Origin: Alopecurus myosuroides
Taxonomy: Eukaryota > Streptophyta > Magnoliopsida > Poales > Poaceae
NCBI GenBank assembly: GCA_028641055.1
Contig: CM054062.1
Coordinates: forward strand, 236,604,376 to 236,668,375
Length of the DNA stretch: 64,000 nucleotides
Direction of reading: 5' to 3'
This document shows positions 3,517 to 42,496 of this stretch, piece by piece. Position numbers and translations under genes: made by a program. The notes beneath the pieces are model-generated. The model was not told where the DNA came from, searched no databases, and saw only the letters and a list, made by a program, of their open reading frames with translations. Each line of letters opens with the position of its first letter. Within the stretch, counting starts at the first letter, position 1.

Positions 3517-4439
3517 TGTCGGGGGGTTACCCCCGAGTAGGGTAAAGACAGGTGGTAAAGGCCGCGTACGGAAGAGAGGTTTGGCCGAGTAGCCGACTAC
3601 CGGGTACTCGCTACCCGGCCGACTGCTACCCGGTCTCACCTCAAGATGGCCAGAAGGAGATATCAATCAGTTTCTACCATGTCGAGTAGAAGGTTTGGCC
3701 CGAGTACAATTGGCGGGAACATTTGGCGGGAAACTACTCGGGCAGGAAGTCAAAGGAGCCGTTCTGACACAGGATCCCGCGTATCCTGGGTCCGTACTTG
3801 GCAGCATTCGAACTACTGTTCACGTGGGGACGGTCTGTCTGACAGTGACAGCATGGAAGCAGTCGGTGGCAGGATAAGGGGGACCTACTCTGTGACTAGG
3901 TACAGTGATACCAGTCTGTCCCCTAGTTTTGCCCAACGACTTTACAGAAGCAGCCAAGACCAACGACCAAAGCTGTCAGCGGGTACTCGGAGAAAGGACA
4001 GTGTGGACACTATGTCGACACTTGTCCAGATTTGGACGTATCCGGCTAGGGCACCATGTATATAAGGTGCCCAGCCGCCTCCTGCGCGAGAGAGACTCAC
4101 AGATGCTCTTAGACGATCTCATTCCAGGCTCATTGAGAACCCTAGAAACCCTAAGTTCTTGACCTAGCTCTACTCGGAGAGGGGCAAGGGGCTACTCGGT
4201 AGCGATATCAGTTGTGTTGTACCTACTCGGAGAGACACCGTAATACATAGAGAAAGGCAGGAGTAGGGGTTTTACCTCCTCACGAGGGCCCTGAACCTGG
4301 GTATATCGTGTTGTTTGTGTTGTGTGGATCTTACCTCACGCGGCTACTGGTCGCGTGATCCCTCCCCGGACACCTCCAGCGTCCATCGTCCCCACATCTT
4401 TAGCCATCCCATGGCATCTGCCGTGACACCACCACGACA
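3517..4439 (+). repeat. 5' LTR of the complete Tat element
   Basis: The LTR begins TGTCGGGGGGTTACCCCC and ends CACCACGACA. The start is itself a short hairpin (GGGGGTTACCCCC). A TATA box lies at 4059-4066. The same sequence appears at 17856-18778 at a constant offset of 14,339 bases. Confidence 0.95.
4059..4066 (+). promoter_or_regulatory. TATA box of the Tat 5' LTR promoter
   Basis: TATATAAG sits about 350 bases before the first ATG of gag, with transcription expected to start roughly 30 bases downstream. The identical box lies in the 3' LTR at 18398-18405. Confidence 0.6.
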
Positions 4440-7400
4440 GTTGGCGCCCACCGTGGGGCCACCAGCGGCGCTGGCTGGGGTTTCTGTTCGGACGGGATCT
4501 TCTTCAGCGGAGCGCGTAGTTTGTGGCCTTGTCCACAGATTCGGCTCTTTCGACTTCGTCACCGACAACGCCGGCTGTTTCGGCGGCAAGGCCATGCCGG
4601 AGGGTGGCTCGGTGATCTCCTTCGGCTCGCATCTCGTCTACGTCGCCACCGTCGCCAACGACGCCTACCCCGAGCTGGTGCAAGACGCGGAGGATCCTCC
4701 CGCGGTTGTTGCTGCTCGCGGAAGGCCTGCATGCAGCTCCGCGTGCTGTGCTGAGGTGATGGTGACGGGCGTGGCGGCAAACGTTGGCGCAGCTGCTACT
4801 GGCGCTGCGGCCGTCGTCGAGGAGGTTGACGACCCGCCCGCGGGTGGCAGGACACGCCGGCCCTACGAGAAGGAGTGCAACCTGCCGCCTTCCACGTCTA
4901 CGGTCATCCCCGCGTCAGCTGCGCGAACCGGGATGCCCACTCCAACCGACCTCGAGCTCCTAGCCGAGAGGGAGCAGCTCGAGCGGCAACGCCAGGAGCT
5001 GCTCGCCGAGCAGGCGGAGTTGGAGAAGATCAGGTTGGAGCTGAGCCTGGACCAGCTCGAGTACAACAAGGCTCACGGCTTCACGCCGGTGGCCAGGAGG
5101 CCCAGCAGGGTAGGCGCAACGCGGCGCAACCTAGGCGCCGAGATGGCGACTGTGGCGGAGGAGCCCGCGCAGTCGGCTACCGCGAACACCTTCACAAGGC
5201 CAAGGTACAGCACACCCGCCAAGACCCTGCGAGCTGCGGAGGCTGTGGCTGCCGAGTTGCCGCGCCTAGAGGGAGAGGCGCGTCGCAGGCAGCAGGAGAG
5301 GCTAGGCGAGCTGGTGCTGGAAGCTGCCAGGCAGAACGAGGAGTTCCGGAAGGCCAACCCGGGAGCTGGAGCTTCGCAAGTGGTTCATTCGCACGCGGCT
5401 AGATCTAACGATCAAGCCTCATCTCCGCATCCTAGCCGCGAGAAGAGCCGCAGCGGGCGTACGGGTAGAGACAGGCAAATGCAGGTGTATGACCCGGCTG
5501 CTGCCGCGAAACAGGTTGCTGTGCCGCAGCAGCCCGGGCAGGAACACAACGCTGCAAGAGCAGGCTCTCAAGCCCACCAAGCTCAAAGCCGTGTCCGAGA
5601 AGCCGCACGTCCGGGTACTTCTCGGCAACCCGCAGCTCCGCCTACTCGGCAGAGGCAGCAGCCACGCCCAGTGGCACCAGTCGTCAACCCGGTGGAGCAG
5701 CCTGCTGCTATGCAGGTGGATAGGTATGATGATGGTTACTCGGCTATGGAGATGGCTGGTTATGACATCCATGACCGTGTGGGTGAGCGCGTGTTGGCGC
5801 CTGGAGATGCAAGGCACCAGCTGGACCGCATCAGCTTGTCGGCGCGGCTTGAGAACACGGGTCCTCCTGGCCCCGAGTGCTTTGGCCCGCGCATCATGAA
5901 CGAGCCGTCCGTGAAGGGCTTTCAGCTCGCGAGAGGCACCAAGAGCTACAATGGTAGCACCAAGCCTGAAGATTGGCTCAACGACTACGTCACCGCGGTC
6001 CATATCGCGAATGGCAACAGGAGATGGGCGGTACGCTATGTGCCGCAGATGCTAGAGGGTCCAGCTCGCACTTGGCTCAACAACTTGCCCAAGAACAGCA
6101 TTAACTGCTGGCTGGACTTCTCGGATGCCTTCATCAGCAACTTCACCAGCACCTACAAGAGGCCGAATAGGCCACAGCAGTTGTCGGCTTGCCGGCAGCG
6201 AGAAGACGAGACGGACCGCGAGTACCTTACTCGGTGGAGCACCTTAAGGAACACCTGTGAGGGTGTGAATGAAGCGCAGGCCATCACTTGGTTTGCGCAG
6301 GGTTGCCGACATGGCAGCATGCTGTGGCAGAGATTGCAGAGGGAGATGCCCAACACCCTGGCCGAGACCATCAAGATCGCGGATCAGTACGCACTCGGCG
6401 ATCCTACTCAGCCACTGATGGATTCCTCTGAGCCGAGAAGAAACTTCAGCAGCGGCAAGCGCAACGAGTTTCGCAACAAGCGCCGAGTAGATACTCGGTA
6501 TGATCCCGAAGAGGTGAATGCAGTGAATGTCGGAGGCGGTGGTGGCCAAAGGCAAAAACCTGCTGGAGCCTACGGGCAGAACCAGAAGCAGGGCCAAGGC
6601 AACAAGAAACCGTTCCGCACTGCGCAGCCGAGTAGCGGGAACTCCGAGCAGCCGAAGAAGTTTGTCTTCGATGACATGAAGGATGGCCCATGCAGCTTTC
6701 ACACTCATCACCCCTCAAGGCCTGCGAACCACACTACTCGGCAATGCGAATGGTGGGATGTGATCAAGAGTGATGGCTTGCCTCCTCCACCTCCTTTGCC
6801 AGCCGCGAATGCCACTGTTCATCCTACTCGCGCTCCTGCAGCTCGGCCGCCAGTGTACCCGAGAAGAGAAAATGTCAACCAGGTGGCTTTAGGAGCCAAC
6901 CAGAACTTCAACAACGAGAGATACCGCAACAACAACAACAACAACTACAACCGCAACAACAACAACAGAGGCAACAACAACTATCAGGGCAACAACAATG
7001 GCAACAATGGGGGCAATGGCCCTAACCAGTACCAAGAGCACCATGAGAGCTATATGATCTTCACTTCCGAGGCAGTCGACAAGCAGTCACAGCACAGGCG
7101 GGCCATGGAGGTCAATGCAGTAATTCCGGCTGTCCCTCACTACATGTACTGGTGCGACCAGGAGATCAGGTGGACTCGGGCAGATCACCCCAAGGTGATG
7201 CCCAATCCGGGTACCTATGCCTTGGTACTGGATCCCACCTTCTTGGGCCCCGAGAAGAATGTGAGGTTCAGCAAGGTGCTGATCGACAACGGCAGCAGCA
7301 TCAACATTGTGTACAAGGACACACTCGAGAAGCTTGGCCTGGCCGAGAACATGATGCTGCCCAGCAAGACCACTTTCCATGGCATCGTGCCCGGGATCTC

Positions 7401-7866
7401 CTGCAACCCGATTGGCCGAGTGTGGATTGATGTGCTATTCGGTACTCGGGAGAACTGCCGCACTGAGCGCCTGCAGTTTGAAGTGGTGGATCATCAGAGC
7501 CCCTATCATGCTCTACTCGGCAGGCCTGCTCTGAGCAAGTTCATGGCCTCCACTCATGTGGCTTACCTGAAGATGAAGATCCCCGGGCCCAATGGCATCA
7601 TCACCATCTCAGGAGATTACAAGAAGTCCATGGAGTGTGCCTCTGCTAGCTCTCAGCTGGCGGAATCGATGGTGATTGCTGCCGAGAAGAAGAAGATGTA
7701 CGAGGTGGTGGCCATGGCTCAGTCCGCACAAGCTGGCGCACAAGGTGTGCCGAGTACTCAGCATGGTACTGCTTTCCAAGCTGCCAAGGAGACCAAGACT
7801 GTCCAGGTTGACCCCGAGTTCCCGGAGCGCGTGGCCATCATTGGTGCCGGGTTGGCGGAGAAATAG
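4411..7866 (+). CDS. Tat gag-protease polyprotein
   Basis: The frame starts at the first ATG (4411), which lies inside the LTR 29 bases before its end, and runs through the primer binding site. An alternative start is the ATG at 4593. The N-terminal third is Ala/Glu/Arg-rich with a likely coiled coil around residues 180-220. The capsid-like retrotransposon gag domain spans roughly residues 500-680 (motifs PEDWLNDY and ARTWLNNLP). An Asn-rich low-complexity run encoded near 6930-7010 precedes the protease, whose catalytic motif reads DNGSSIN with a later ALLGRPAL motif. The frame ends at TAG 7864-7866, and the pol frame continues in the same phase directly after. Assembly into particles and polyprotein cleavage are expected roles from the family. 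Confidence 0.85.
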   Translation: MASAVTPPRQLAPTVGPPAALAGVSVRTGSSSAERVVCGLVHRFGSFDFVTDNAGCFGGKAMPEGGSVISFGSHLVYVATVANDAYPELVQDAEDPPAVVAARGRPACSSACCAEVMVTGVAANVGAAATGAAAVVEEVDDPPAGGRTRRPYEKECNLPPSTSTVIPASAARTGMPTPTDLELLAEREQLERQRQELLAEQAELEKIRLELSLDQLEYNKAHGFTPVARRPSRVGATRRNLGAEMATVAEEPAQSATANTFTRPRYSTPAKTLRAAEAVAAELPRLEGEARRRQQERLGELVLEAARQNEEFRKANPGAGASQVVHSHAARSNDQASSPHPSREKSRSGRTGRDRQMQVYDPAAAAKQVAVPQQPGQEHNAARAGSQAHQAQSRVREAARPGTSRQPAAPPTRQRQQPRPVAPVVNPVEQPAAMQVDRYDDGYSAMEMAGYDIHDRVGERVLAPGDARHQLDRISLSARLENTGPPGPECFGPRIMNEPSVKGFQLARGTKSYNGSTKPEDWLNDYVTAVHIANGNRRWAVRYVPQMLEGPARTWLNNLPKNSINCWLDFSDAFISNFTSTYKRPNRPQQLSACRQREDETDREYLTRWSTLRNTCEGVNEAQAITWFAQGCRHGSMLWQRLQREMPNTLAETIKIADQYALGDPTQPLMDSSEPRRNFSSGKRNEFRNKRRVDTRYDPEEVNAVNVGGGGGQRQKPAGAYGQNQKQGQGNKKPFRTAQPSSGNSEQPKKFVFDDMKDGPCSFHTHHPSRPANHTTRQCEWWDVIKSDGLPPPPPLPAANATVHPTRAPAARPPVYPRRENVNQVALGANQNFNNERYRNNNNNNYNRNNNNRGNNNYQGNNNGNNGGNGPNQYQEHHESYMIFTSEAVDKQSQHRRAMEVNAVIPAVPHYMYWCDQEIRWTRADHPKVMPNPGTYALVLDPTFLGPEKNVRFSKVLIDNGSSINIVYKDTLEKLGLAENMMLPSKTTFHGIVPGISCNPIGRVWIDVLFGTRENCRTERLQFEVVDHQSPYHALLGRPALSKFMASTHVAYLKMKIPGPNGIITISGDYKKSMECASASSQLAESMVIAAEKKKMYEVVAMAQSAQAGAQGVPSTQHGTAFQAAKETKTVQVDPEFPERVAIIGAGLAEK
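4442..4460 (+). other. Primer binding site of the complete Tat element
   Basis: TGGCGCCCACCGTGGGGCC begins two bases after the LTR end. The same site is found in the pol-deleted Tat element (complement at 45171-45189). I do not assign the tRNA species. The site is read in frame as part of the gag open frame (residues QLAPTVG). Confidence 0.7.
7864..7866 (+). other. In-frame TAG between protease and reverse transcriptase
   Basis: This is the only stop separating gag-protease from pol; both sides share the same frame. A CAG to TAG change by deamination of a methylated cytosine (CHG context) would explain it. Programmed readthrough is the alternative. Confidence 0.8.
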
Positions 7867-10800
7867 GAAAGCGCGCTCATCCACTTCCTCCGTGAGAATC
7901 GGGACGTGTTCGCCTGGACCAATGAAGATCTACCAGGGGTCCCGAGGGAGTTGGTTGAGCACTCTTTGCATGTGCGTCCTGACGCCAGGCCCGTGAAGCA
8001 GGCCTTACGCCGTTTCGGGGATGAGAGAAGGAAGGCCATCGGTGATCAAATCACCAAGCTGCTGATCAGTAACTTCATCATGGAGGTGCTGCACCCGGAC
8101 TGGTTGGCCAACCCGGTCATGGTCGAGAAGAAAAAGGAAGATCCCGAGGCTGCCACCGCATGGCGCATGTGTGTCGACTACACCGACTTGAACAAGGCAT
8201 GCCCCAAGGATCCTTTCCCGCTACCTCGCATCGATCAGGTGATCGATTCCACTGCCGGCTGTGAGCTGTTGTCTTTCATAGATGCCTACTCTGGTTTCCA
8301 CCAGATTGCACTCAACCCTGCTGATCAAATAAAGACTGCTTTCATTACCCCGTACGGGGCTTATTGCTATCGTGTCATGTGTTTTGGCCTGAGGAATGCG
8401 GGTGCAACCTATCAGAGATGCATGCAGAAATGCTTGCACGACCAACTCGGCAAGAATGTGCAGGTGTACGTAGATGACATTGTCATCAAAACGAATAAAA
8501 CACATACTCTGCTTGCCGACTTGGAGGAAACCTTTGCTAACCTACGCAGGTACAAAATGAAACTGAATCCGAGTAAGTGCACCTTTGGTGTACCAGCTGG
8601 AAAGCTACTCGGCTTTCTCGTTTCTAGTCGGGGCATTGAAGCCAATCCGTCTAAGATAAAAGCTATTGAAAGCATGTCTTTGCCGAGATCATTGAAAGAT
8701 GTGCAGAAGTTCACTGGTTGTTTGGCATCTCTGAGCCGTTTCCTGGGCCGAATGGGCGAGAAGGCTCTACCTCTGTACCAGCTGATGAAGAAAAGCGACA
8801 AGTTTATCTGGACTCCGCAGGCGGATGTGGCATTCAATGAGCTGAAAGCAATGCTGGCTAGTGCTCCCGTCTTGGCTAGTCCGCTACCCAAGGAGCCTAT
8901 GCTGCTGTACATTGCCGCGACTAACCGAGTAGTCAGCGTGGTGATAGTGGTGGAGCGAGAAGAAGAAGGCAAGAGTGTGCAGCGCCCAGTCTACTATCTC
9001 AGTGAAGTGCTGTCCAGTTCCAAGCAAAACTATCCGCATTACCAGAAGATGACATATGGTGTGTACCTGGGCGCCAGGAAGCTGAAACATTACTTCCAGG
9101 AGCATCCCATCACTGTTGTGAGCTCAGCTCCCATCTCGGACATCATGGGTAACAAGGAGGCGAGTGGCAGAGTAGCCAAGTGGGCGATTGAGCTAGCCGC
9201 GTACGCTCCCGCGTATACGAGAAGAGAAGCAATCAAGTCTCAGGTGCTGGCAGAATTTCTTGTCGACTGGGCCGAGATGCAATATGAACCTCCTGCTCCA
9301 GTCTCAAACTACTGGAAGATGCACTTTGATGGCTCAAAGGTGAAAGAGGGCCTTGGTGCTGGCGTTGTGCTTACATCGCCCAAGCGGGATCAGCTCAAGT
9401 ATGTGTTGCAGATTCATTTCAAGGCATCCAACAATGTCGCCGAGTACGAGGCAGTTGTGCATGGTTTGCGGGTAGCAAAGGAGGTTGGTGTGCAGCGCAT
9501 TATCTGCTATGGCGACTCCGATCTGGTGGTGCAGCAAGTCTCAGGTACCTGGGATGCCTTGGATGCCAACATGGCGTCGTATCGCTTCCTGGTGCAGTCA
9601 ATGACTGGGTTTTTCGAAGGCTGTGAGTTCCAGCACATTCACCGAGCAGAAAACGAAGCAGCAGATGAGCTGTCCAAGTTGGGATCTTCTCGGCAGTCCA
9701 TCCCGGCAGGGATTGCCTTGGAGCATTTGAGGAAGCCATCCATCAAGCCTTCCCCCAACTCGGAATCTATCTTTGTTCCCTCTCTGCCAAGTGAAGAATC
9801 AGACCCAATGGAGATTGACTGGGAGAGTGCTGCAGGGAACCCGGGGACTGCCGTTCCCTACTCGGGGACTGCCACTCCCTACTCGGGGACTGGCGTTCCC
9901 TACTCGGGGACTGCCACTCCGTACCCGGGGACTGCCACTCCCTACCCGGGGACTGCCATTCCTTACCCGGGGACTGCCATTCCTTACTCGGGGACTGCCG
10001 CCCTCAACCCAGAAGCTGTTGCATTCATTGAAGAAGTTCTCGCCAATCGATCTGGGCTGCAGAGAAGCGCTCCTACTCCTCCTGTGCAACCACCAGAGCC
10101 TGTCCCAATGGAAATGGACGAACCAGTGTTTCCCGTGCGGGAGACACCGAATTGGGCAATGCCCATATTATCCTTTCTAAGGGACGGTACTTTACCCGAA
10201 GATGAGGTGACCGCGAGGCAGATTCAGAGAAGATCCAAGGGCTACGCCTTAGTCCGAGACGTGCTGCACAAGAGAAGTGCCACTGGTGTGCTGCAACGCT
10301 GTGTGAGCCCAGAGGAAGGAGAAGAAATCCTGGTGGAGATACATCAAGGGGAATGTGGGCATCACGCCTCTTCTCGGGCTTTAGTCAAGAAAGCTTTTCG
10401 GCATGGCTTCTACTGGCTCACTGCATTGCAGCAAGCTGAGGACATTGTGAGGAAGTGCGCCGGCTGCCAGATGTTCGCAAGTAAGATTCACATGCCAGCA
10501 TCCGAGTTGAAAACAATTCCTATCACATGGCCGTTTGCTGTTTGGTGCTTGGATATGGTTGGTCCTTTCAAGCCGGCTAAGGGCAATATGACACATATCT
10601 TGGTCATGGTGGACAAGTTCACCAAGTGGATCGAGGTGAAGCCTATTCGGAAGTGCGATGGAGTCACAGCTGTGAAGTTTGTGAAAGATGTGATCATGAG
10701 ATATGGCTACCCGCACAGTATCATCACCGACAACGGCACCAACTTTGCAGAGGGGGCAATGGTGCGATTCTGCAGAAATAAGCATATCCGACTAGACGTT

Positions 10801-11418
10801 GCGTCAGTCGCGCACCCTGCCTCCAATGGGCAAGTTGAGAGAGCAAATGGGATGGTACTGGCAGGCATCAAGCCAAGGCTGATTGAGCCATTGCTGAAAA
10901 CACCCGGGTGTTGGCTAGAAGAGTTGCCAGCGGTGTTGTGGAGTCTAAGGACTACCCCTAACCGGTCAACCGGCTACACGCCATTCTTCTTGGTATACGG
11001 GGCTGAGGCCGTGTTGCCAATAGACTTAGAGCATGACTCCCCCCGAGTAGCCCTCTACACTGAGGTGGAGGCGAGAGAAGCTCGAGAAGACGACGTTGAC
11101 CTGCTTGAAGAAGCAAGAGAGCTGACTCTGTCACGTTCGGCTATCTACCAGCAAAACCTGCGGCGTTATCATAGCCGAAAGGTGAACCCAAGGGTTTTCC
11201 GAGAAGGAGACATGGTCCTTAGGCTTGTGCAGCGCACAGCCGGGATGCACAAGTTGTCTCCTCCATGGGAAGGGCCTTTCATTGTCAGCAAAGCGCTGCA
11301 CAATGACGCGTACTATCTTGTAGATGTGCGCCCATCACAGGCGAACAGGGCAGATAAAGCTGGAGAGGAAACCAAGCGTCCCTGGAATGTAGCTCTACTC
11401 CGTCGTTTTCATTCGTAA
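7867..11418 (+). CDS. Tat pol: reverse transcriptase, RNase H, integrase
   Basis: The frame is open without interruption for about 1180 codons. Reverse transcriptase comes first, with DPFPLPRIDQ, the FGLRNAGATYQ motif and the catalytic YVDDIVIK. An RNase H domain related to the RT thumb follows. A second RNase H-like domain with FDGSK and YGDSDLVVQQ comes next, the dual arrangement known in Tat elements. A linker with a 7-residue repeat follows, then an integrase zinc finger (H-H-C-C ending CAGCQMF) and the catalytic core with LDMVGPF, TDNGTNF and the glutamate in GQVERANG. No chromodomain follows. The product would copy the element RNA and insert the cDNA. There is no ATG near the start, so expression depends on passing the preceding TAG. 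Confidence 0.9.
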   Translation, partial: ESALIHFLRENRDVFAWTNEDLPGVPRELVEHSLHVRPDARPVKQALRRFGDERRKAIGDQITKLLISNFIMEVLHPDWLANPVMVEKKKEDPEAATAWRMCVDYTDLNKACPKDPFPLPRIDQVIDSTAGCELLSFIDAYSGFHQIALNPADQIKTAFITPYGAYCYRVMCFGLRNAGATYQRCMQKCLHDQLGKNVQVYVDDIVIKTNKTHTLLADLEETFANLRRYKMKLNPSKCTFGVPAGKLLGFLVSSRGIEANPSKIKAIESMSLPRSLKDVQKFTGCLASLSRFLGRMGEKALPLYQLMKKSDKFIWTPQADVAFNELKAMLASAPVLASPLPKEPMLLYIAATNRVVSVVIVVEREEEGKSVQRPVYYLSEVLSSSKQNYPHYQKMTYGVYLGARKLKHYFQEHPITVVSSAPISDIMGNKEASGRVAKWAIELAAYAPAYTRREAIKSQVLAEFLVDWAEMQYEPPAPVSNYWKMHFDGSKVKEGLGAGVVLTSPKRDQLKYVLQIHFKASNNVAEYEAVVHGLRVAKEVGVQRIICYGDSDLVVQQVSGTWDALDANMASYRFLVQSMTGFFEGCEFQHIHRAENEAADELSKLGSSRQSIPAGIALEHLRKPSIKPSPNSESIFVPSLPSEESDPMEIDWESAAGNPGTAVPYSGTATPYSGTGVPYSGTATPYPGTATPYPGTAIPYPGTAIPYSGTAALNPEAVAFIEEVLANRSGLQRSAPTPPVQPPEPVPMEMDEPVFPVRETPNWAMPILSFLRDGTLPEDEVTARQIQRRSKGYALVRDVLHKRSATGVLQRCVSPEEGEEILVEIHQGECGHHASSRALVKKAFRHGFYWLTALQQAEDIVRKCAGCQMFASKIHMPASELKTIPITWPFAVWCLDMVGPFKPAKGNMTHILVMVDKFTKWIEVKPIRKCDGVTAVKFVKDVIMRYGYPHSIITDNGTNFAEGAMVRFCRNKHIRLDVASVAHPASNGQVERANGMVLAGIKPRLIEPLLKTPGCWLEELPAVLWSLRTTPNRSTGYTPFFLVYGAEAVLPIDLEHDSPRVALYTEVEAREAREDDVDLLEEARELTLSRSAIYQQNLRRYHSRKVNPRVFREGDMVLRLVQRTAGMHKLSPPWEGPFIVSKALHNDAYYLVDVRPSQANRADKAGEETKRPWNVALLRRFHS
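9843..10010 (+). repeat. 21-bp minisatellite in the RNase H-integrase linker
   Basis: Eight units with a 21-base period start at 9843, 9864, 9885, 9906, 9927, 9948, 9969 and 9990. Each begins GGGGACTG and encodes variants of GTAVPYS. The core GGGGACTGC is the same as the polypurine tract next to the 3' LTR (17847-17855). Confidence 0.9.
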
Positions 11419-12095
11419 GCAAAGATGTGTATGTACCCTTTCATCCGAGTTGAAATTCTACTCTGCAATCTAAAATTGTTCTCGGGGACTGCCCTCATCC
11501 AAAATTGCTCTAAGTGTTTTTACTCGGCTTGTTCTTTTGTCTATTCGGTTGCTTCACTTCAGAACTCAAAAGTGCATTGAGTACTGTGTTTAAACCTATA
11601 TGCCAACTCTTCGACTCCGCTGCTGTCCGAAACCCGGCTTCATGGCAAGCAAGAGAACAAGCAAAAGGTCAATGAGCACACGAAAATCACTAAGGAAGAA
11701 AGAGTGCAGGAACCGAGTAGATTGTCGGTTACTTTTTGTTCCCTGTTTTCGTCTTCTCGGCTAGGTGGTGGGCTGCGTTATCATGATTGTTTTCTAGCGG
11801 CTAAGTATTTGCAGTCTTGTTCTTTGATTCTTGTGACTCGAATACCAAACAAGCGACAAGTCGCAGGTAGAGCAGAGATGACAAGACAGGGTGAATAAGA
11901 AAAGCTACTCGGGGACTCGCATGAAAACACAACTCGGCATTAAGCCATTGTCGTGCAAATTGATTAATGTCAACGTAAACCGAGTGGGCATAAAAACTGA
12001 GTAGCAAGCAAGATAAAGGTAGTCTGTTACATCTGCTCCCGGCATCCCGGGGATCTGATAAAATGTTCAAGTGAAAGAAAAGATTGCAGGTTGCT
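11419..12095. other. Convergent spacer between pol and the antisense gene
   Basis: This 677-bp stretch lies between the pol stop and the stop of the opposite-strand gene. It has no convincing coding frame. It carries further copies of the CGGGGACT motif (near 11483 and 11909). Both transcripts should end here, so overlapping 3' ends are possible. Confidence 0.6.
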
Positions 12096-15000
12096 TCAAG
12101 TTGCAGAGGAGATGTTCTCGGCGCTGGCCTTGGCGGCTGTTTCCTCGGCGGCGGCCTTGGCAGCAGTTTCTTCAGTAGCAGTGGCGGTAGCTGCTTCTTC
12201 GGTGCCGGCTTGAGTGGCATCCGCTCCCGTCTGCACGACGGTGGATTCCTCCATCTCGGCATCCTCCTGGGTGGCCGTCTGCTCGGAAGTGGCCGTGGCT
12301 ACCGAGACGGGTCCTGGAGCCGAGGAGGAGCCTGAAGCGTGGCCAGGAGGAGGCACCGTGTCGTCGAGAGCAGCACCTGAGGAGGTGCCAAAGTCGAGTG
12401 GCTCGCTGTCGATGTGCGCCCCTTCGTCTTCATCGCTACTCGCGACGACGGTGGCCTTGCCCTTCCCGGCTTTGCCCTTGGGAGATTCGAAGTACTCCCC
12501 AAGTTCCTCCTCATCGTCATCTTCGTCGTCCTCGTACTCGGTGTCGGGTTCGGGGACGCCATCGATGTAGACCTCCGTCTCGGCGCACTCTGCGACATCA
12601 TATGCAATCTGCTTGCGCAAGGCCACGCTGTCGGCATCAGTCTCCCACTTGGAGTTATTGCGCTTCCCGCGGATGAGCTGCATGTCCAGGTTCTCATACC
12701 AGGACGCAATGCAGAGAAGCATCACATCCGCACCAGCACGGGCTCCGGAGGCTCGCCACTTCTTTAACTCGGCCTTCACGCCTTCCAGCTTGAGGGCGAG
12801 CGCCCGCATGCTTTTTGGCTCAGGATCATGGGGCCAGAACAGCCGGTGGAGCTCAATGCCCGCGTGCATCAAATCAGTCCCGCAGCCGGCCAGCTGTTCG
12901 AAGTAACCTTTGAGCACCACCAAGCTGTCCTCGATATCAGCCCTGGTGTCAATCGGCTCACCCAGTGAAAGGCGAACTGCTCGGGCCTTGGCTATCGAGG
13001 GCGCAGAGGTAGACTCAAGACGAGGCCAAATCTCTGAAATAGCAAGTGGCAAGATCAAAAACCGAGAAAGAAAAGAGGAAGCCGAGAAGGAATAGAACCG
13101 AGAAGAAAAGATGCAATGAAGAAAAGAACTTACCGATTAGTTGGCGGCGCAGCTGCTGCAGCTTGGATCTCCAGGATTCCTCGTTGTTAATCTGCTTTGA
13201 TTGAACCTGGCGCAGGGTGTCCATCTGAGCGAAAAGATCAGCGTTGGTCTTCTTCAGAGTCTCGCACTCGGCCTCGAGGGCCCTCTCCTTGGCCTTAAAG
13301 GTAGTCTCGGCCTTGGCTTTCTCGGCGATGGCCGCGTCCCTCTCGGCGCCAATCTTCACGGCGTCTTGGAGCGCGTTCTGAAGCTGGACCTGCAGCTTCT
13401 CCATCTCGGTGGTGTGGTCCTTAATCAGAGTAATAGCCTGATCGGACAGCTGTTTCTCCACCTCTGCTGGCTGGACGCAATCTTGGTGTGCCTCAGCAAA
13501 TGACTTATAATCTTCTGCGAAAAGATAAGATAAGGTCAGCAGATATGCAGAGAAGAAACAAATTCGAGACAGAACCGAGTAAACAACAAGCTCACCTTCA
13601 AGTCTCTTTATGGTGGCCTCGGAGTCTGCCACAAAAGCACGGCACTTCTCGTGCTCGTCGACTAGGGCCTTCAGGTTAGCTGCAGAGAAGGAAAGGTTAG
13701 TGCCAAAGAAAGCAGGAGCGAGCGTAAAAATAAAACGCAGAAACCGCGTAGCTAAAAGGCCTACCCTGCACTTCAGTCAGCTGCTGGCTGCTCTCATTGG
13801 CGTTTTTGCTTGCGGCCTCGGCATCTGCCTTCTCTTTCTCCAGTGCGGTGATGCGTCTCCTGGCGATGGAGTGGTTCCAGAGAAGGATGCGGTACAAGTT
13901 GGTCCGCTTGAGAACGCTATCCTGAAAACCGAGAAGAAAATGAGTTAGGCAAAGCAGAGAAGATTTGGCCCGAGTAGGAGGCTACTCGGAGAGTGTCCAC
14001 CTACTCGACCCAAATCTCGGGGACTGGGAGTGATGGTGAGAAAGAAGGAAGGCGAGTAGAAGAGAAGAAAATTCAACTCGGAAAAGGCAAAAAGACTTAC
14101 TGCGTAGCTCTGTTCGATATCTTCGGCGTTCTTGCGGTGCAAGAACATCTTGGCTGCGAGGGTGGCGGTGTCGGTGGAGACGGACATGGGCTGGTGTCCC
14201 AAGTCGATCTTGTTCCACTCCACGCGGTAGTGGTCGACGGAGCCAAGGGTCAAGCCATGCCACTTATCCTCTCCGAGAACCCCGCTGTCCCACTTGGCGC
14301 TGATGTAGCCGACAGTATCCAATACCTGCTCAAGACCCTTGGAGGTTATTGGCTTGTCTTGGGGTCCCCGAGAAGCAATATTGACGGGTTTATTCTGGGC
14401 TGGATCGAAGGGAGGAGTATTCCTGGCTACTGCTTTCCTCCCCTTCTGAATAGCTACAGCTTTATCTTGGGGAGGGAAGCCGATGCTATGTTGGTGGCTA
14501 ACCTCAATCATATATTCCGGGTAGCAAGGCTGGCCAGCAGCGCGAGCGCCCGCAGAGAGTGCAGCAGGAATCGGGCCGGAGTCGCGGATCGCGAGTGCTC
14601 CGCCTGCGGATGCGCCTTGCTCTCTGGCCCTTTTCTTCGTCTGCTCCTTCTCGATCTTCTTCTTCTCGGGATCCTCGGGTTTCTTCCCCTCAGTCTTGGC
14701 CTTTGCCTTCTCGGCGACTGCTTCCTCGGCAGCTCGCTTCTCGGCTTTCTTCTGTTCAGCCCTGGCCTTCTTCTGCTCGGCCTTGGCTCTCTCAGCAGTT
14801 TCTTTCTCGGCTTTGGCCTTCTCGGCGGCTTCCTCCTTGGCCTTGGCCTCCTCGACAGCCACCTTATCGGCAGTCTCCTTCTCGGATAGACCCTTCTTGG
14901 AGCAGTAATCCCTCAAAGCATCAAGGGCCTGTTGCTTGGCTGCCCGCCCAGGAGAGCTGAATGTGTCCTTGCTCTGTGGAGACGAGGAAGAGGTTGGTGG

Positions 15001-17172
15001 TGTAGGGCCTTGCGCAGTTGGTGGCGTAGGGCCTTGCGCAGTTGGTGGCGCCGCAGATCCACCGCCTGGCAGTGGGTAGACATCTGCTACGGTAGCGTCC
15101 GCGGCGGGGTCATCTGTCACCAGCTGCTCGGCAGCAACATTCTCTTGTGCGGCAGCCTCGGTGGTGGGCTGCTCTGCCTCTGGCCGCTCAAGGGCGGCGG
15201 CGTCTTGCTTTTCTTGTTCTTGATTCTCCTCGGCGTTGCTAGCCGGAGGAGAAGGGGGTCTCTCGTCGTGGACGGCGGCGTCATGTGATGCTGGTTCAGA
15301 CGCTGCTCCTTGTGCTGGGTTGGCAGCAGCAACATTGGCGTCGCGGTCCTCATCGTCATCGTCCAGGTTGACCAGAGGTACTGGTTTCTTCCGGGCTGGG
15401 TCGGATGCGAGGGCTGCGTTCGCATCCATGGCAGGACTGCAGAGAAGAAAGGAATCAGGAATTGGAAGAAAATGGGGAAAGTGGTACTGCGCGAGAAGAA
15501 AGACGACCGGGAAGGAAGCTTACGCGGTAGTGGAAGAGAGCTGTTTCCTCTTTCTCTTCGTGGTGAGCTTGGTGGGTTTCTTCTTCTCGGGGGTCTCTCC
15601 CTCCTCGGCGGGCTTCTTCTTCTTCTTGGCAGGGGGCGCTCGTGCTTCGCCGCCTGTCCGTTTGCGAGTTTCGGGAGGGGCAACCGACAGAGGCTTGACG
15701 ACAAGGGGCGCATCGCCCTCGTTCTCGTCCTCATCCTCGTCGTCCTTCTCCGCAGCGGCCTCATCTGAGAAATTCAAAGGAAAGAAGAAGTGAATCAGAA
15801 ATAGCAATACAAGGAGTTGATGCTTCCCGGAAACAAGCAAGATGAGGATGCTATTACCGTCAGAGCCGTCGTCCGCCCAAGTGTTAAGGACGTCGCGCTT
15901 CTCGGGAACGGGGCTGCTCTGCTCCGCGTCATCAGAGGGGGGTACATCATCCTCCTCGCGATCCTTGGACGAGTTGTCCTCGAAGACCTCGCTGCTTTCA
16001 GTGAGCTGGCGAGTAAGAGTCTGAAAGGCAGAGAAGGATCACAAGTTAGCCGAGTACCAGAAAAGAACTCTACTCGGGTAGGCGTGCACCCACGAAGCAC
16101 ACTAAGCCTAGGCTTTTTTCTAAATTTCCTACTCGACGAGGCGTGCAGGCACAAAGCACACTAAGCCTAAGGCGATTTAGCTAAGTGTCCTACTCGGTGC
16201 ACGAGGCGATTGCTAGTCGAGGCGGAAAGAGAAGCTATCTACTCGGAAGGCAGAGACGAAAACAGAGTAAGGGAGACGTACCCGTAAGATTGGAGTCCTA
16301 CGGCTGAACGGGAGGAACCCGTACCGCCACTTCTCGTTGAGGCTGGTCTTCAGGATGTTCCTGGCAAGCCGGGGAACGTCAGCGTCGTCGATCTCGACGG
16401 TGGTGGTCCTGGTGCAATCGCGAGGCCCTCCCATGTAACACATGAGGTGGCATCGCTCCTGCAGAGGGAGCACCCGGCGTTTGATCCAGCACGCTACTGG
16501 ATCGTCATTCCTGAGGCCATGCGTCTTCAGCCAGGCGAGTTGCGTCTCTATCTCGGTGGCGTTCTCGTCGTTGACGGGCTTCTCCTTCCAATTCGACCCG
16601 AGTGGAGCACGCTTGCTCCAAGGGGGCAGGTTGATCCGATCGTCGACGGGGGCTCCATCAGCGGCGGCAACGTTCCTCACGTAGAAGAACGTTTGCTGCC
16701 ACATTCGGCAGGAATCCAGCCCCTGGATGCGGGGGTGGTTCGTCCCGTTCCGCTGCACCATCATGGCGCAGCCGACGTCGGTGGCGCGAGGAACGCCCGC
16801 GCCGTCCTTCTTCCCGACGGATTGTTGGCGAAGATGGAAGTAGTGGAGCCACGTCTCCACGGTGGGCCTGATGCCGAGAAAAGCCTCGCACACCACGGCG
16901 TGGTATGCGAGGAAAACGACTGCATTGGGCGGCAGATGGTGCATCTGCAGCCCGAAGTGATTCAGGAACTTACGCATGAAGTCCGATGCTGGCAGCCCGA
17001 ACCCGCGCTCGAAGTGGGACATGAACACCACGCGCTCTCCGTCCCTGGGCTTGGGCACGACCTCGTCGTCGGGTGCCCGGCACTCCACGCCGGGGGGAAC
17101 CCTTCTCTCGTTCACGAGCCAGGCGAGGTTGGCTTGGGTGATGGAGGAACCGGCCCAGCAGGACTTGGCCAT
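12096..17172 (-). CDS. Antisense spliced gene of the Tat element, PF04195-type protein
   Basis: I assembled eight exons on the minus strand: 17172-16282, 16020-15858, 15764-15524, 15436-14101, 13921-13765, 13679-13596, 13514-13134 and 13033-12096. Every junction is GT-AG, every phase matches, and the total is 4191 nt (1396 residues plus stop). Exon 1 encodes the domain named 'putative gypsy type transposon' (about residues 45-210, with HFERGFGLP and FLNHFGLQMHHLPPNAV). Exon 3 is rich in lysine clusters that resemble nuclear localisation signals. Exon 4 holds a long Lys/Ala/Glu-rich coiled-coil-like tract. Exons 5-7 are heptad-rich, and the C-terminus is acidic then Ala/Thr/Glu-rich. The gene lies between pol and the 3' LTR with its own TATA box. 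Its function is unknown. The splice model is my inference from sequence; the intact frame across seven junctions is strong support. Confidence 0.82.
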
Positions 17173-17840
17173 GGTTGCGGGTGGAAGAATCGGAAATCAA
17201 ACGGGGTTGGTGGCGGAGCGAGTCCGCGGCGGCGCAGAGGCTAGCGCGGCGGCGGAGCGCTCGGTGGCGGAGAAGAACGGGAGGAAGAAGAGGAAATGAG
17301 CAGGGAAGGGGAAAAGAAAGTTACCGCGGGGGTATTTATACCTCCTCGGCGAGATTACCGTTACCACCACGGTAGTGGGATCGGCTGTGGCGTGTGGTGG
17401 GTCATGTGGCCGGATAGAAACGCACACAAGCGCGGGCTGCGCGCGTAACGGCCGCATTTGATCCCACCTTCAGATCGTGGCCAGTAATTGCGCGTGATGG
17501 GACATGACGGCCGGTGGGCCCACGGCGTGAAAACTGGACACGTGGCGTCGTGTCCTGGGCAACCAAACGACAAGGTCGTGGATGCTTGACACGTAGGCAG
17601 TGCCTGCGTGAAGGGCTGGATGTTGCTCTGCGCTGCAGAGGCTCAGTCTGCAAAATTTCGCTAAGTCTTTTTACTCGGATACAGAGTAGAAAGCAAGTGA
17701 TACTCGGAAAGAGGAGACTCAAGATACTTTCCGGATAGCTACTCGGAGGACCTACTCGGCATCTTGAGGTTCGATGGCTGAGATGCAAAGGCTGGTTTTA
17801 AGCTGGCAGAGCCTAGTGAACAAGTTCGCAAGACTCAACC
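17173..17840 (-). other. Promoter and upstream region of the antisense gene
   Basis: The segment between the antisense start codon and the 3' LTR holds the TATA box, a purine-rich 5' leader and several CTACTCGG/ACTCGG motifs that also recur in the LTR. No coding frame is supported. Confidence 0.45.
17333..17340 (-). promoter_or_regulatory. TATA box of the antisense gene in the complete Tat element
   Basis: On the minus strand this reads TATAAATA, 160 bases upstream of the ATG at 17172. The same octamer stands upstream of the equivalent gene in the second Tat element (36544-36551). Confidence 0.65.
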
Positions 17841-17842
17841 AG

Positions 17843-17855
17843 CTTCGGGGACTGC
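17843..17855 (+). other. Polypurine tract of the complete Tat element
   Basis: CTTCGGGGACTGC abuts the 3' LTR start TGTCGG. The pol-deleted Tat element has the closely similar GGGGACTAC at the same place. Confidence 0.7.
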
Positions 17856-18778
17856 TGTCGGGGGGTTACCCCCGAGTAGGGTAAAGACAGGTGGTAAAGG
17901 CCGCGTACGGAAGAGAGGTTTGGCCGAGTAGCCGACTACCGGGTACTCGCTACCCGGCCGACTGCTACCCGGTCTCACCTCAAGATGGCCAGAAGGAGAT
18001 ATCAATCAGTTTCTACCATGTCGAGTAGAAGGTTTGGCCCGAGTACAATTGGCGGGAACATTTGGCGGGAAACTACTCGGGCAGGAAGTCAAAGGAGCCG
18101 TTCTGACACAGGATCCCGCGTATCCTGGGTCCGTACTTGGCAGCATTCGAACTACTGTTCACGTGGGGACGGTCTGTCTGACAGTGACAGCATGGAAGCA
18201 GTCGGTGGCAGGATAAGGGGGACCTACTCTGTGACTAGGTACAGTGATACCAGTCTGTCCCCTAGTTTTGCCCAACGACTTTACAGAAGCAGCCAAGACC
18301 AACGACCAAAGCTGTCAGCGGGTACTCGGAGAAAGGACAGTGTGGACACTATGTCGACACTTGTCCAGATTTGGACGTATCCGGCTAGGGCACCATGTAT
18401 ATAAGGTGCCCAGCCGCCTCCTGCGCGAGAGAGACTCACAGATGCTCTTAGACGATCTCATTCCAGGCTCATTGAGAACCCTAGAAACCCTAAGTTCTTG
18501 ACCTAGCTCTACTCGGAGAGGGGCAAGGGGCTACTCGGTAGCGATATCAGTTGTGTTGTACCTACTCGGAGAGACACCGTAATACATAGAGAAAGGCAGG
18601 AGTAGGGGTTTTACCTCCTCACGAGGGCCCTGAACCTGGGTATATCGTGTTGTTTGTGTTGTGTGGATCTTACCTCACGCGGCTACTGGTCGCGTGATCC
18701 CTCCCCGGACACCTCCAGCGTCCATCGTCCCCACATCTTTAGCCATCCCATGGCATCTGCCGTGACACCACCACGACA
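17856..18778 (+). repeat. 3' LTR of the complete Tat element
   Basis: This copy matches the 5' LTR base for base as far as I can read. It is preceded by the polypurine tract GGGGACTGC and followed by the target duplication TAGAT and the resumed Athila LTR. Confidence 0.95.
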
Positions 18779-19773: not shown

Positions 19774-19791
19774 TGGCGCCATTGCCGGGGA
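19774..19791 (+). other. Primer binding site after the Athila-type LTR
   Basis: TGGCGCCATTGCCGGGGA matches the tRNA-Asp-type primer site typical of Athila elements. It marks the start of an internal domain that is cut off within some tens of bases by the decayed Tat element. Confidence 0.7.
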
Positions 19792-35688: not shown

Positions 35689-36167
35689 TGTCGTGGGATA
35701 ATCACGGCAGACGTTACCGGGGGTAACTGATCTTGGGGCAAGACGACACAGGTGTTTGGGAGAGGGTTTAGCTCAGAGGAAAACATGGTGCAATTCGATC
35801 TGGCAGCCGACAATCAAAGTCGTCGAGTCTCCGATCTTGATATAACAACTCAACTATGGGATTACACTGGATGCTCGATATCAAGCGATATTGCTAGGGT
35901 TCTTGGATCTCTTCCTAAACTAGACCTGGGGGTCGGTTTATAAAGCACCCGTACCCCCTGGCTTATTCTCCAAGGCGCATCCTGGATCCTACCCGGACAC
36001 GGCGCACAAACCCTAACTTTCTTCTACCATAACCCACAACCCGGGTTACTGGGCCTAGAAGCTGGGGCCTTCACTAGTTTCCTTATCCTTAGCCGGATCC
36101 TGTACATCGTCCTTTGGGCCGGGTTACTCCTTGGAGTTTGGCCTACCGGGTTATCATCCCCCCATCA
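35689..36167 (-). repeat. 3' LTR of the pol-deleted Tat element
   Basis: It begins TGATGGGGGGATGATAA on the minus strand and ends CCCACGACA. The inner flank reads GGGGACTAC, the polypurine tract. A TATA-like TTTATAAA lies at 35937-35944. Confidence 0.9.
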
Positions 36168-36543
36168 GTAGTCCCCAGAATAGCCTGGGCTTCATGGATC
36201 CTTCCTTGAAGCGCTCGCTATTCCCTGCAAAGATATCAAACACACGAGTATGTGGAGGCCGGGTTAAAGCGCCTCAATAAATAGCTAGGCCTTACTCCAT
36301 GGTGGCCATATAGTAACCCGGCTCTTCCTCAATTACCTAAGTTACTTTCCCAGGTAAAACCCCAAAATGTCAAGATTTTACACTTGATAATCGACCTGAT
36401 ATCACGGGATGGATCTCTTTCTCCTTTTCGTTCAGATCCCATGCTCAACATTTAAAGGGCATCTCGCCAAAACTCAAATAAATAGCCGTTTACTTCCGCA
36501 ACTCCCGGCTCCCGCTCACTGAACCGGGCTTATCCATTCGCCC

Positions 36544-36551
36544 TATAAATA
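36544..36551 (+). promoter_or_regulatory. TATA box of the antisense gene in the pol-deleted Tat element
   Basis: TATAAATA is followed by a C/G-rich leader and a probable 5' leader intron (donor GTAAGCC at 36820, acceptor TTTGCAG ending 37341). The start codon follows at 37351. Confidence 0.65.
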
Positions 36552-37350
36552 AGCTCCTTGGGGGTAACCCGAACCCTAACGGCTCATTTCCCCCCACTCC
36601 GCTTCCTTTCTCCCTCTGAGCTCATTCTCGCTGAGCGCCACCACGGAAATCCCGCGCGCATCACTGGAGCCCATCGGCCGGAGGCTGCGCTCCGCCACTG
36701 CTTGCCCCGCGCCGCCGCCAAGATCCGCCGGCGAATCTCCATCCGGCCCGTCAGGAACCGCGAAGGGACACCAGGCCTGCGCCATCTGCCTCCGCAAGGC
36801 TTCACTCAGATCCCCTCCGGTAAGCCTTTTGCACCCATTAATTTGCCCTTGCAACTTTTGATTTTACCTCAGATTAGATCCAAATCAGCCCGCCACGGAT
36901 TTCTCGGCCATGCCGAATTAGGCTACCAATAGTCTTTTCTAGCTCGCCCAATGGATAAAACGTATACTCCAATCCACTCTCCTACTACCTGCAATCATTA
37001 TTCTCGCCACAAATCTTAAGATGGAATTTCCAATCTAGGCTTGAACTACTCGAAGTTTCCGCCTTTGCCTCAATCACCCGGCTGGACCTCCCCTTTCTAG
37101 TTCCTTTTATTCGCGCTAAGTGCCTATGCAGCCATCCATCGCCCTCAAAAGCTCCTTCAACGTTTAGATCCCATAATTTTCGCCATAATGCTCGATACCC
37201 GGATAATTTCGAACTTTACTCTGCGAGCTAACACCCGGATTACGCGCAATTTCTCATGTCTCAATATTACCCTGCCGATACTCGGCCGGCTCACAACTTC
37301 CGTGTCTTGGTCTTCTTATCCTTTTACCTTGTACTTTGCAGGTCAACCAC

Positions 37351-40300: not shown

Positions 40301-40533
40301 AGGAAGCACCCCCGCCCTTTGATATCTTGGAGAAGTGGGTTTCTAACTCGGCCAGGAAGAGGGAGGCGACTGCAAAGAGAGAGGCCGAGCTAGGATCAGG
40401 TCCGTCTGCCTCCACACCAGCCGTCCCTCCACCTGTCCGCCCTGGTGCAGTGAGTCCGGGTAAGGGTGCCGGGAAGGCTAAACAGCAAGCCCAGGACCCA
40501 GAGCCGGAAGACCGTACTCAGGAGGCTGAATAG
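37351..40533 (+). CDS. Antisense spliced gene of the pol-deleted Tat element, PF04195-type protein
   Basis: Eight coding exons assemble on the strand opposite gag: 37351-38280, 38361-38442, 38522-38643, 38733-38826, 38905-38956, 39041-39431, 39572-39773 and 39866-40533. All junctions are GT-AG with matching phases, giving 2541 nt (846 residues plus stop). Exon 1 carries the 'putative gypsy type transposon' domain (about residues 60-200, including HVTRGFRPPGHPFF and LSHYGLRVFDIGPNSV). Exons 2-6 encode short acidic and lysine-rich segments with KKK clusters. Exon 7 is a heptad-rich coiled coil (LEDDMKTLKKDV). The last exon has a conserved globular part ending in a Pro/Ala/Gly-rich tail. The layout parallels the 1396-residue gene at 12096-17172, though the proteins are strongly diverged. 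Function is unknown; the exon model is inferred. Confidence 0.82.
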
Positions 40534-42472: not shown

Positions 42473-42496
42473 TATCTTTTTGTCCTTGTTAGAGCC

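What the first reader, a model, noticed from the sequence alone, without database searches (positions are those of the whole stretch)
12096..17172. Intact eight-exon antisense gene inside a very young Tat retrotransposon
On the strand opposite gag-pol, between pol and the 3' LTR, a gene of 1396 codons can be assembled with seven GT-AG introns. Every phase matches and no stop interrupts it. It carries a PF04195-type domain, basic clusters and long coiled-coil regions. Antisense reading frames are known in Tat-lineage elements, but a multi-exon, TATA-driven, fully intact gene in a copy with no visible LTR difference suggests an active second transcription unit of unknown function.
Basis: partly seen in the sequence, partly recalled or inferred. 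Interest (0 to 1): 0.87.

Follow-up and report, generated by a model that had tools for sequence, protein, structure and literature searches.

The report
Spliced antisense gene in plant retrotransposon
A young plant retrotransposon carries, on its opposite strand, an eight-exon protein gene that natural selection is preserving, and the element is peppered with a short DNA motif that the protein may recognise.

Summary
The minus-strand model 17172-12096 reproduces exactly: eight exons, seven GT-AG introns, 1396 codons, PF04195 near the N terminus, identical 923-bp LTRs.

An antisense PF04195 gene is a published hallmark of Retand elements. Added here:

(1) One spliced two-module gene. The PF04195 part and a C-terminal helical module absent from Pfam lie in one protein in 51 of 65 held-out grass homologues. 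A distant second element in the window keeps an eight-exon version.

(2) Purifying selection. dN/dS is 0.125-0.275 in its own family and 0.134-0.198 in the second element's family.

(3) A conserved promoter box. One TATAAATA lies upstream in 13 of 13 genes examined, none in the 101 kb from their start codons on.

(4) Element-specific dispersed motifs: ACTCGG here, ACCCGG in the second element. The excess survives synonymous-codon shuffling. ACCCGG is the best-conserved of 125 frequent hexamers between copies.

Best reading: a nuclear DNA-binding accessory protein that reads motifs in its own element, working most like VANC anti-silencing proteins. Transcription and binding are untested, and not every related locus shows the motif.

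The parts
3517..18778 (+). LTR retrotransposon (element E1), Ty3/gypsy, Retand-like
   Evidence: identical LTRs and TAGAT on both sides; gag, RT, RNase H, integrase by Pfam
3517..4439 (+). 5' LTR, 923 bp
17856..18778 (+). 3' LTR, 923 bp, identical to the 5' LTR
4267..7866 (+). gag-side open frame (stop to stop; begins inside the LTR)
   Evidence: PF03732
7867..11418 (+). pol open frame: RT, RNase H, integrase
17333..17340 (-). TATAAATA box of the antisense gene, 168 bp before the ATG
   Evidence: one of two TATAAATA in the window on both strands
16282..17172 (-). antisense exon 1, codons 1-297, PF04195
15858..16020 (-). antisense exon 2, acidic
15524..15764 (-). antisense exon 3, acidic then lysine/arginine-rich (NLS-like by eye only)
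14101..15436 (-). antisense exon 4, low-complexity/charged; the variable exon of the family
13765..13921 (-). antisense exon 5
13596..13679 (-). antisense exon 6
13134..13514 (-). antisense exon 7, coiled-coil-like (a TPR/MLP1 match below its cut-off covers residues 931-1058, exons 6-7)
12096..13033 (-). antisense exon 8, C-terminal helical module (residues about 1085-1245) and acidic tail
16080..16196 (.). 59-bp tandem repeat (2 copies) in intron 1 carrying motif copies
3517..17855 (.). dispersed ACTCGG / CTACTCGG motif: 58 ACTCGG and 26 CTACTCGG, both orientations
35689..45672 (-). second element (E2), LTRs 35689-36169 and 45192-45672 (474 of 481 identical); gag and protease-side frames; tblastn with E1 pol finds only a 52-residue RT-side stub
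37351..40533 (+). E2 antisense gene, eight exons (37351-38280, 38361-38442, 38522-38643, 38733-38826, 38905-38956, 39041-39431, 39572-39773, 39866-40533), 846 codons
   Evidence: comparative check
36544..36551 (+). TATAAATA box upstream of the E2 antisense gene

Best explanation
The minus strand between pol and the 3' LTR carries a second transcription unit of the retrotransposon, with its own TATA promoter and seven introns. Because it is antisense, its introns are invisible to the spliceosome in the sense genomic RNA, so an intron-rich gene survives reverse transcription. The product is an accessory protein with three parts: an N-terminal PF04195 domain, a variable acidic/basic middle, and a coiled coil leading to a C-terminal helical module. 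It most likely enters the nucleus and binds short ACYCGG motifs dispersed through its own element (ACTCGG in this family, ACCCGG in the family of the second element). There it probably changes the chromatin or transcription state of the element, most likely as an anti-silencing factor that works like VANC. Shown here: a spliced coding gene under purifying selection, a conserved TATA box, and a motif conserved at the DNA level. Inferred: transcription, nuclear location (reported only for Grande gene23), protein-motif binding, and the direction of the effect.
For: Gene model and domain. Better than shuffles. Intron/exon composition. Two modules in one protein. Eight-exon homologue in E2, with an intron at the end of the PF04195 exon and one at the start of the C-terminal exon as in E1. 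E1 family: dN/dS 0.125-0.275, 7 of 7 GT-AG pairs in 4 of 4 other copies, shared exon insertions of 12, 6, 6 and 9 nt, the shared 4-nt insertion in intron 3. E2 family: dN/dS 0.134-0.198, intron ends kept, L022 fully open when cut at its own splice sites. Exon 1 omega median 0.085 over 55 pairs of 11 copies. TATAAATA upstream in 13 of 13 genes and 0 in 101,060 nt from the ATG on, same strand. Motif. VANC comparison: PMC5735166 passages and PMC10398659 abstract. Sunflower Retand elements show local CG-methylation loss with CHG methylation kept: PMC12844716 passages.
Against: There are no RNA reads. No experiment links the protein to the motif; the link is co-occurrence. The PF04195 region gave a model of middling confidence (pLDDT 65) with no PDB match, so DNA binding is not shown by fold. 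Two of three FC loci (L016, L017) lack a clear ACYCGG excess and show other top k-mers; the six FD loci carry PF04195 but no motif, and five of them show no gag/pol match. The third FC locus, L014, has the E1 motif but its gag/pol matches lie on the same strand as the gene. E3 (18779-27500), where tblastn found no PF04195 gene, has a raised ACTCG core (33 in 8.7 kb), although its top k-mers are not above controls. In E1 the motif is not in excess in the antisense exons (TACTCGG 1 observed, 0.69 expected), and a variant, TTCTCGG, is in excess there and in gag-pol, so the exact motif is not settled. Unlike VANC targets, most motif copies are not in tandem repeats. Intron phases of E1 and E2 agree at 3 of 7 places, no more than chance. 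Copies decay: L029 has a one-base exon deletion, L021 and L024 each have a one-base length change in exon 8, L023 a stop in exon 1. The sunflower CG dip is also reported for eight other lineages. None of five polyadenylation signals tried lies between the gene and pol.
Confidence: 0.45

Rival explanations
1. Autoregulator: the protein binds the motifs in the LTRs and body to repress or time gag-pol transcription, as an antisense-encoded HBZ-type protein might act on its provirus.
For: The motif is dense in the LTR (TACTCGG 8 in 923 nt). Antisense, own promoter and nuclear product are parallels drawn for Grande (PMC7264820 passages).
Against: The motif is also spread through introns and gag-pol, and ACCCGG is conserved over whole 10-kb stretches, which a promoter switch would not need.
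Confidence: 0.2
2. Nuclear import or integration factor: the protein coats element cDNA through the dispersed motif and helps it enter the nucleus or choose sites.
For: The motif occurs in both orientations all over the element (33 plus, 19 minus for TACTCG), as expected for recognition of double-stranded cDNA. E2, in which no RT (beyond a stub) or integrase was found, still keeps the gene.
Against: The Pfam scan shows no integrase-like domain in the protein; nothing ties the gene to cDNA.
Confidence: 0.2
3. The dispersed motif is read by a host factor, or is kept for another reason, and has nothing to do with the antisense protein, whose function is separate.
For: Only co-occurrence links them. 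Each variant is mildly raised in the other element (ACCCGG 20 in E1, ACTCGG 18 in E2). L014 shares the E1 motif although its exon 1 is only about 28% identical. E3 has a raised ACTCG core without a detected PF04195 gene.
Against: The outer element and the other window stretches show no comparable excess, and the main variant differs between families.
Confidence: 0.3
4. The RNA is the product: the antisense transcript pairs with genomic RNA and feeds siRNA control; coding is incidental.
For: dsRNA is discussed for these elements in PMC7264820 (passages).
Against: dN/dS 0.13-0.28, shared exon insertions in multiples of three and kept splice sites show selection on the protein.
Confidence: 0.04
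5. The open frames are separate antisense ORFs or chance, and the spliced model is an artefact.
For: Introns 2 and 6 are not forced by frame. The published survey lists the antisense ORFs separately (PMC11963269, parts read).
Confidence: 0.03

Closest known systems
TRP28 (PF04195) antisense ORFs of plant Retand elements (Vicient 2025, PMC11963269; parts 1-3 of 5 of the text read)
   Same: Antisense, between pol and the 3' LTR, PF04195 domain, long pol-3'LTR region (6437 bp here, 2933-6566 published range), recent copies, proposed DNA binding.
   Different: That survey lists ORFs of 600 bp or more one by one; the word intron does not occur in its main text. Here they are exons of one spliced gene with a second conserved module, measured selection and a dispersed motif.
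Maize Grande gene23 (Gomez-Orte 2013; paper not held, known from PMC7264820 and PMC11963269 passages)
   Same: Antisense accessory gene, own promoter upstream of it, nuclear protein.
   Different: Experimentally transcribed and located there, not here; I could not compare its sequence or check its exon structure.
VANC anti-silencing proteins of VANDAL DNA transposons (PMC5735166 passages, PMC10398659 abstract)
   Same: Element-encoded protein; short element-specific motif dense in the element and rare elsewhere; conserved parts and a variable region in the protein.
   Different: No shared domain is known to me, and the carrier is a DNA transposon. VANC motifs sit mainly in noncoding tandem repeats, arrayed in one orientation; here they are also in coding DNA, in both orientations, mostly not in tandem. 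Binding and demethylation are shown for VANC, not here.
Antisense retroviral regulators such as HBZ of HTLV-1 (from PMC11963269 and PMC7264820 text)
   Same: Antisense gene of an LTR element acting in the nucleus.
   Different: The HTLV antisense promoter lies inside the 3' LTR; here the TATA box lies between gene and LTR. No sequence relation was tested.
Reverse-oriented globin lentiviral vectors (PMC6775231, start of abstract in a search listing only)
   Same: Reverse orientation is used because an intron is needed.
   Different: Engineered; here it would be a natural case (inference).

Membership tests
Retand-lineage antisense TRP28 gene | PF04195 domain | tested here: met
   E 6.6e-20, 71.6 bits, cut-off 26.2
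Retand-lineage antisense TRP28 gene | Antisense to gag-pol, between pol and 3' LTR | tested here: met
Retand-lineage antisense TRP28 gene | Long pol-3'LTR region | tested here: met
   11419-17855 = 6437 bp; published 2933-6566
Retand-lineage antisense TRP28 gene | Reverse transcriptase groups with Retand in a tree | not tested
Retand-lineage antisense TRP28 gene | No chromodomain in pol (non-chromovirus) | tested here: inconclusive
   Pfam scan of pol lists no chromodomain at E 0.01
Grande gene23-type accessory gene | Own internal promoter | tested here: inconclusive
   TATAAATA upstream in 13 of 13 genes examined; activity not tested
Grande gene23-type accessory gene | Antisense transcript | not testable with these tools
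   no RNA data
Grande gene23-type accessory gene | Nuclear protein | not testable with these tools
   lysine/arginine-rich runs in exon 3 seen by eye only
VANC-type anti-silencing system (works like, not member) | Homology to VANC | not tested
   no VANC sequence was compared; PF04195 is the only Pfam match above cut-off
VANC-type anti-silencing system (works like, not member) | Element-specific short motif, dense in the element, rare elsewhere | tested here: met
   CTACTCGG 26 in E1, 0 in E2, 2 in 38,751 nt of the rest of the window; TAACCCGG 11 in E2, 0 in E1, 1 in the rest; 'elsewhere' is this window only
VANC-type anti-silencing system (works like, not member) | Motifs mainly noncoding and in tandem repeats | tested here: not met
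   motif also in gag-pol, flanks mostly unrelated
VANC-type anti-silencing system (works like, not member) | Protein binds the motif and lowers methylation | not testable with these tools
   no binding or methylation data here

The most novel reading that the evidence does not exclude
Retand retrotransposons carry a self-recognition system. A spliced antisense gene, kept intron-rich by its orientation, encodes a sequence-specific DNA-binding protein. Its ACYCGG target motif is written all over the element, even into gag-pol through synonymous codons, and differs between families, so that each family protects or marks its own copies. In the papers I could see, no VANC-like anti-silencing system is described for an LTR retrotransposon; this would be one.
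Probability: 0.3. Interest if true: 0.88.

Novelty: new variant of a known kind. Interest (0 to 1): 0.74.

Why it matters
Antisense PF04195 genes are reported in 97% of clusters of recent Retand elements, a lineage abundant in some plant genomes (for example 15,904 copies in maize, from the same text), and their function is an open question in print (PMC11963269, PMC7264820). Showing that they are single, spliced, selected genes, and that their elements carry a conserved dispersed motif, turns 'unknown function' into one binding experiment. It also offers a reason why such genes are antisense: only that orientation lets an intron-rich gene pass through an RNA stage (inference).

Tried and rejected
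Led nowhere. The C-terminal module alone as a protein query found nothing at E 0.001 among 994 candidates. The viral-contig scan found no relative among 12 pattern matches. The PF04195-region model had no PDB match, and its profile one chance row, a ClpB coiled coil at E 0.084. The exon 8 model has low overall confidence (pTM 0.27) and was not searched by fold. The bacterial promoter scan is not meaningful for a plant gene. Gomez-Orte 2013 is not held. Three motif strings searched as whole words were found in one unrelated DNA-code paper (open-licence library only).

Rejected. Chance ORFs. Recent capture of a host gene: module order is shared by many elements; an ancient origin from a host gene is not excluded, since PF04195 loci without gag/pol exist. 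Motif as a by-product of protein sequence or codon use: synonymous shuffles. Motif as tandem duplication: flanks differ, and the 21-bp pol array was left out of the gag-pol test. Matching intron phases as evidence of homology: 3 of 7 is about what chance gives.

Rows dropped or limited. L023 was left out of the exon 1 dN/dS (in-frame stop), so 11 of 12 copies were used. Motif-conservation pairs share copies; one search repeats the test on 5 disjoint pairs, and on the single pair E2-L022, where ACCCGG ranks 3 of 14 behind two hexamers that can overlap it. In the youngest pair, L018-L027, the motif is no better kept than controls (43 of 47 against 714 of 803). 20 of 150 listed PF04195 hits were fetched at 10 kb, chosen for spread of score and open frame; of these the TATA test used 11 (FA and FB) plus E1 and E2. 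4 of 40 listed E1 copies were fetched. The HMM was built from 30 of the first 56 proteins, so only the 65 held-out proteins count as a test, and nearly all come from the same few grasses. With a stricter BLAST cut-off only 28 of the first 56 showed both modules; with the HMM 41 of 56 did. The protein searches see only proteins of 0.55-1.75 times the query's length.

Full report
What is there. The window holds an LTR retrotransposon (E1, 3517-18778) with 923-bp LTRs identical at every base and TAGAT on both sides. The plus strand carries gag and a pol frame with RT, RNase H and integrase. Its model reproduces exactly: 8 exons, 7 GT-AG introns, 1396 codons plus TGA. PF04195 matches residues 48-116 at E 6.6e-20. 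The family has multiplied very recently.

Is it more than chance? A splice-aware search for the best spliced frame scores 4339 on this strand. Forty dinucleotide shuffles gave a mean of 539 and a maximum of 853, and the other strand gives 1157. Predicted introns are T-rich (0.397) and exons T-poor (0.154). A caveat: introns 2 and 6 carry no in-frame stop and are multiples of three, so frame alone does not demand their removal; the search kept them and chose another donor for intron 4.

A second, distant example in the same window. A second element (E2, 35689-45672; LTRs 474 of 481 identical) has gag and protease-side frames; tblastn with E1 pol finds only a 52-residue stub. On its opposite strand lies a PF04195 gene only about 27% identical to the first. 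It too can be read as eight exons, 846 codons, all phases matching. As in E1, one intron follows the PF04195 exon and one precedes the C-terminal exon; intron phases agree at 3 of 7 places, which is about chance. The automatic splice search did not find this model by itself; it returned a single exon, and the eight exons were set by hand from splice-like sites and frames. Three other copies of the E2 family test it. All seven introns end in GT-AG in L024; in L021 and L022 one donor column read TT, which the alignment shows to be a shift of one column. Cut at its own sites, L022 is open throughout; L021 and L024 each carry a one-base length change in exon 8 and are broken there, while their other exon-length differences are multiples of three.

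Two modules in one protein. Database homologues are nearly all from Lolium and Festuca (56 proteins; 115 proteins, of which two are Miscanthus; the lists overlap, and only proteins of 0.55-1.75 times the query length can appear). They match exon 1 at about 42% identity and, many of them, exon 8 far downstream. A profile of the C-terminal part built from 30 of the first 56 proteins finds it downstream of the PF04195 part in 51 of 65 held-out proteins. The gene 2 C-exon match to this profile is weak (HMMER 9.4 bits; hhalign probability 18%) but in the right place. In 11 of 11 FA and FB loci from the genome the gene 2 C exon is found on the antisense strand downstream of exon 1; in FC loci neither C-module query found it. 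Exon 8 has no Pfam match at E 0.1 and is predicted as helices followed by a disordered acidic tail, at low overall confidence.

Selection. In the E1 family, four further copies give dN/dS of 0.125 to 0.275 (10 pairs of 5 copies, 1395-1396 codons). All seven GT-AG pairs are kept in 4 of 4. Three of the four copies share exon insertions of 12, 6, 6 and 9 nt, all multiples of three, and a 4-nt insertion in intron 3; the fourth has no indel. One copy, L029, has a one-base deletion in an exon. Most differences between the two subfamilies sit in exon 4, the charged low-complexity exon, so the family looks mosaic or has a fast-changing middle. In the E2 family dN/dS is 0.134-0.146 for five pairs and 0.198 for the sixth, over 842-845 codons. 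For exon 1 alone, 55 pairs of 11 FA and FB copies give a median of 0.085 (range 0.05-0.50; the 0.50 is a very young pair).

Promoter. TATAAATA occurs twice in the window on both strands together, at 17340 (minus) and 36544 (plus), each upstream of one antisense gene. In 13 of 13 genes examined (E1, E2 and 11 FA/FB loci, many of them related copies) there is exactly one on the gene's strand in the 2.1-2.4 kb held upstream of the ATG, and none in 101,060 nt from the ATG on. The 143 nt of the expected E1 leader (start assumed 30 nt from the box) are pyrimidine-rich and hold no ATG. In the FA and FB genes the box is 681-818 bp upstream, so a leader intron is likely (inference). No polyadenylation signal of five types tried was found between the gene and pol.

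The dispersed motif. While looking for binding sites I found that E1 is full of CTACTCGG. ACTCGG occurs 58 times in 14,339 nt of E1 (one LTR), against 15 in 38,751 nt of the window outside E1 and E2; CTACTCGG 26 against 2. TACTCGG is densest in LTR and introns, present in gag-pol, and rare in the antisense exons (8 in 923, 7 in 886, 19 in 6979 and 1 in 4191 nt). Both orientations occur and flanks are mostly unrelated. A variant, TTCTCGG, is also in excess in E1 gag-pol and in its antisense exons. E2 has its own variant: ACCCGG 51 in 9503 nt, TAACCCGG 11 against 0 in E1 and 1 in the rest. Shuffling synonymous codons shows the excess is not due to protein or codon use. In E1 gag-pol without the 21-bp array TACTCGG is 15 observed, 0.90 expected; in E2 gag and protease ACCCGG is 21 against 5.5; in the E2 antisense coding sequence 18 against 4.4 (each 0 of 500 shuffles). 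In the E1 antisense coding sequence there is no excess (1 against 0.69). The outer element's gag-pol and the other window stretches show no comparable excess; E3, a decayed relative without a detected PF04195 gene, has a raised ACTCG core but no k-mer above control level.

Is the motif kept? In the fetched relatives, 8 of 8 FA and 4 of 4 FB stretches (E2 included) show 38-54 ACCCGG per 10 kb, with 16-27 ACTCGG. Of three FC loci, L014 shows the E1 motif and L016 and L017 show other top k-mers; the six FD loci show none. Between copies, ACCCGG is conserved in 178 of 221 cases over five disjoint pairs, the highest of 125 frequent hexamers (overall 0.543; ACTCGG is sixth). In the most diverged pair it is kept in 27 of 47, against 160 of 851 other NNNCGN hexamers, and ranks third of 14. 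This is the pattern of a functional DNA-level site.

How it probably works. Shown: a spliced protein gene, selected, with its own TATA box, in elements studded with a conserved motif. Inferred: the antisense orientation hides the introns from splicing of the genomic RNA, much as globin vectors are built in reverse because an intron is needed (PMC6775231, search listing only). The protein is nuclear, as Grande gene23 is (from PMC7264820 passages). It binds the motif, and binding changes the state of the element. The closest working parallel is VANC, which binds short motifs dense in its own VANDAL element and removes methylation (PMC5735166 passages; PMC10398659 abstract). Sunflower Retand elements show local loss of CG methylation with CHG kept (PMC12844716 passages); other lineages there also show local CG loss, so this fits but does not prove it. 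Direction (anti-silencing, repression or import) is open.

What is known and what is new. Antisense PF04195 ORFs are described as a Retand hallmark, in 97% of recent clusters, function unknown (PMC11963269, parts 1-3 of 5 read). Its main text does not use the word intron, and the 2020 review calls for looking at spliced antisense transcripts (PMC7264820 passages). In my 10 paper searches of an open-licence library I saw no spliced model of this gene, no C-terminal module and no dispersed motif; I opened eight of the listed papers, in passages, parts or outline only, and subscription papers were not visible. So: a new variant of a known kind, with a strong and easily tested lead to function.

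Noticed in passing
window 35689-45672: A Retand-like element, probably non-autonomous: no RT, RNase H or integrase detected beyond a short stub, yet an open gag and an open eight-exon antisense gene are kept.
   Followed up: yes
L010, L011, L012, L013 (contig C1, about 541.7-543.7 Mb): Eight of the 150 listed PF04195 matches lie within about 2 Mb. The four read at 10 kb have no gag/pol match and no motif; possibly host genes derived from, or ancestral to, the element gene. L015 on a small contig is alike; L009 (C1 509 Mb) has one gag/pol match.
   Followed up: partly
window 9842-9999: A 21-bp tandem array (7.5 copies) inside pol between RNase H and integrase, coding a PYSGTAT-like repeat and carrying motif copies.
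   Followed up: no
L029, L030, L032 against window 14101-15436: In the E1 family most differences between two subfamilies sit in antisense exon 4, with in-frame insertions; the rest is almost identical, as after recombination.
   Followed up: partly
G000 C7:5165744-5169345 and C4:226252821-226256592: Two E1 copies have exon 1 and exon 8 about 1.1-1.3 kb closer together than in the window, so shortened forms exist.
   Followed up: no
window 31129-57754: What looks like a larger Ty3-type element with LTRs of about 4 kb, split by nested insertions, one of which is E2 (self-BLAST).
   Followed up: no
window 18779-27500: A decayed gag-pol related to E1 (pol about 48% identical) on the minus strand (20354-26504), with a raised ACTCG core that is not above controls as a k-mer.
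   Followed up: partly
L016 and L017: These Retand-like loci lack a clear ACYCGG excess but show GGGGGCTA, AGCCCCC and CACCCGA as top k-mers; perhaps a third motif class.
   Followed up: no
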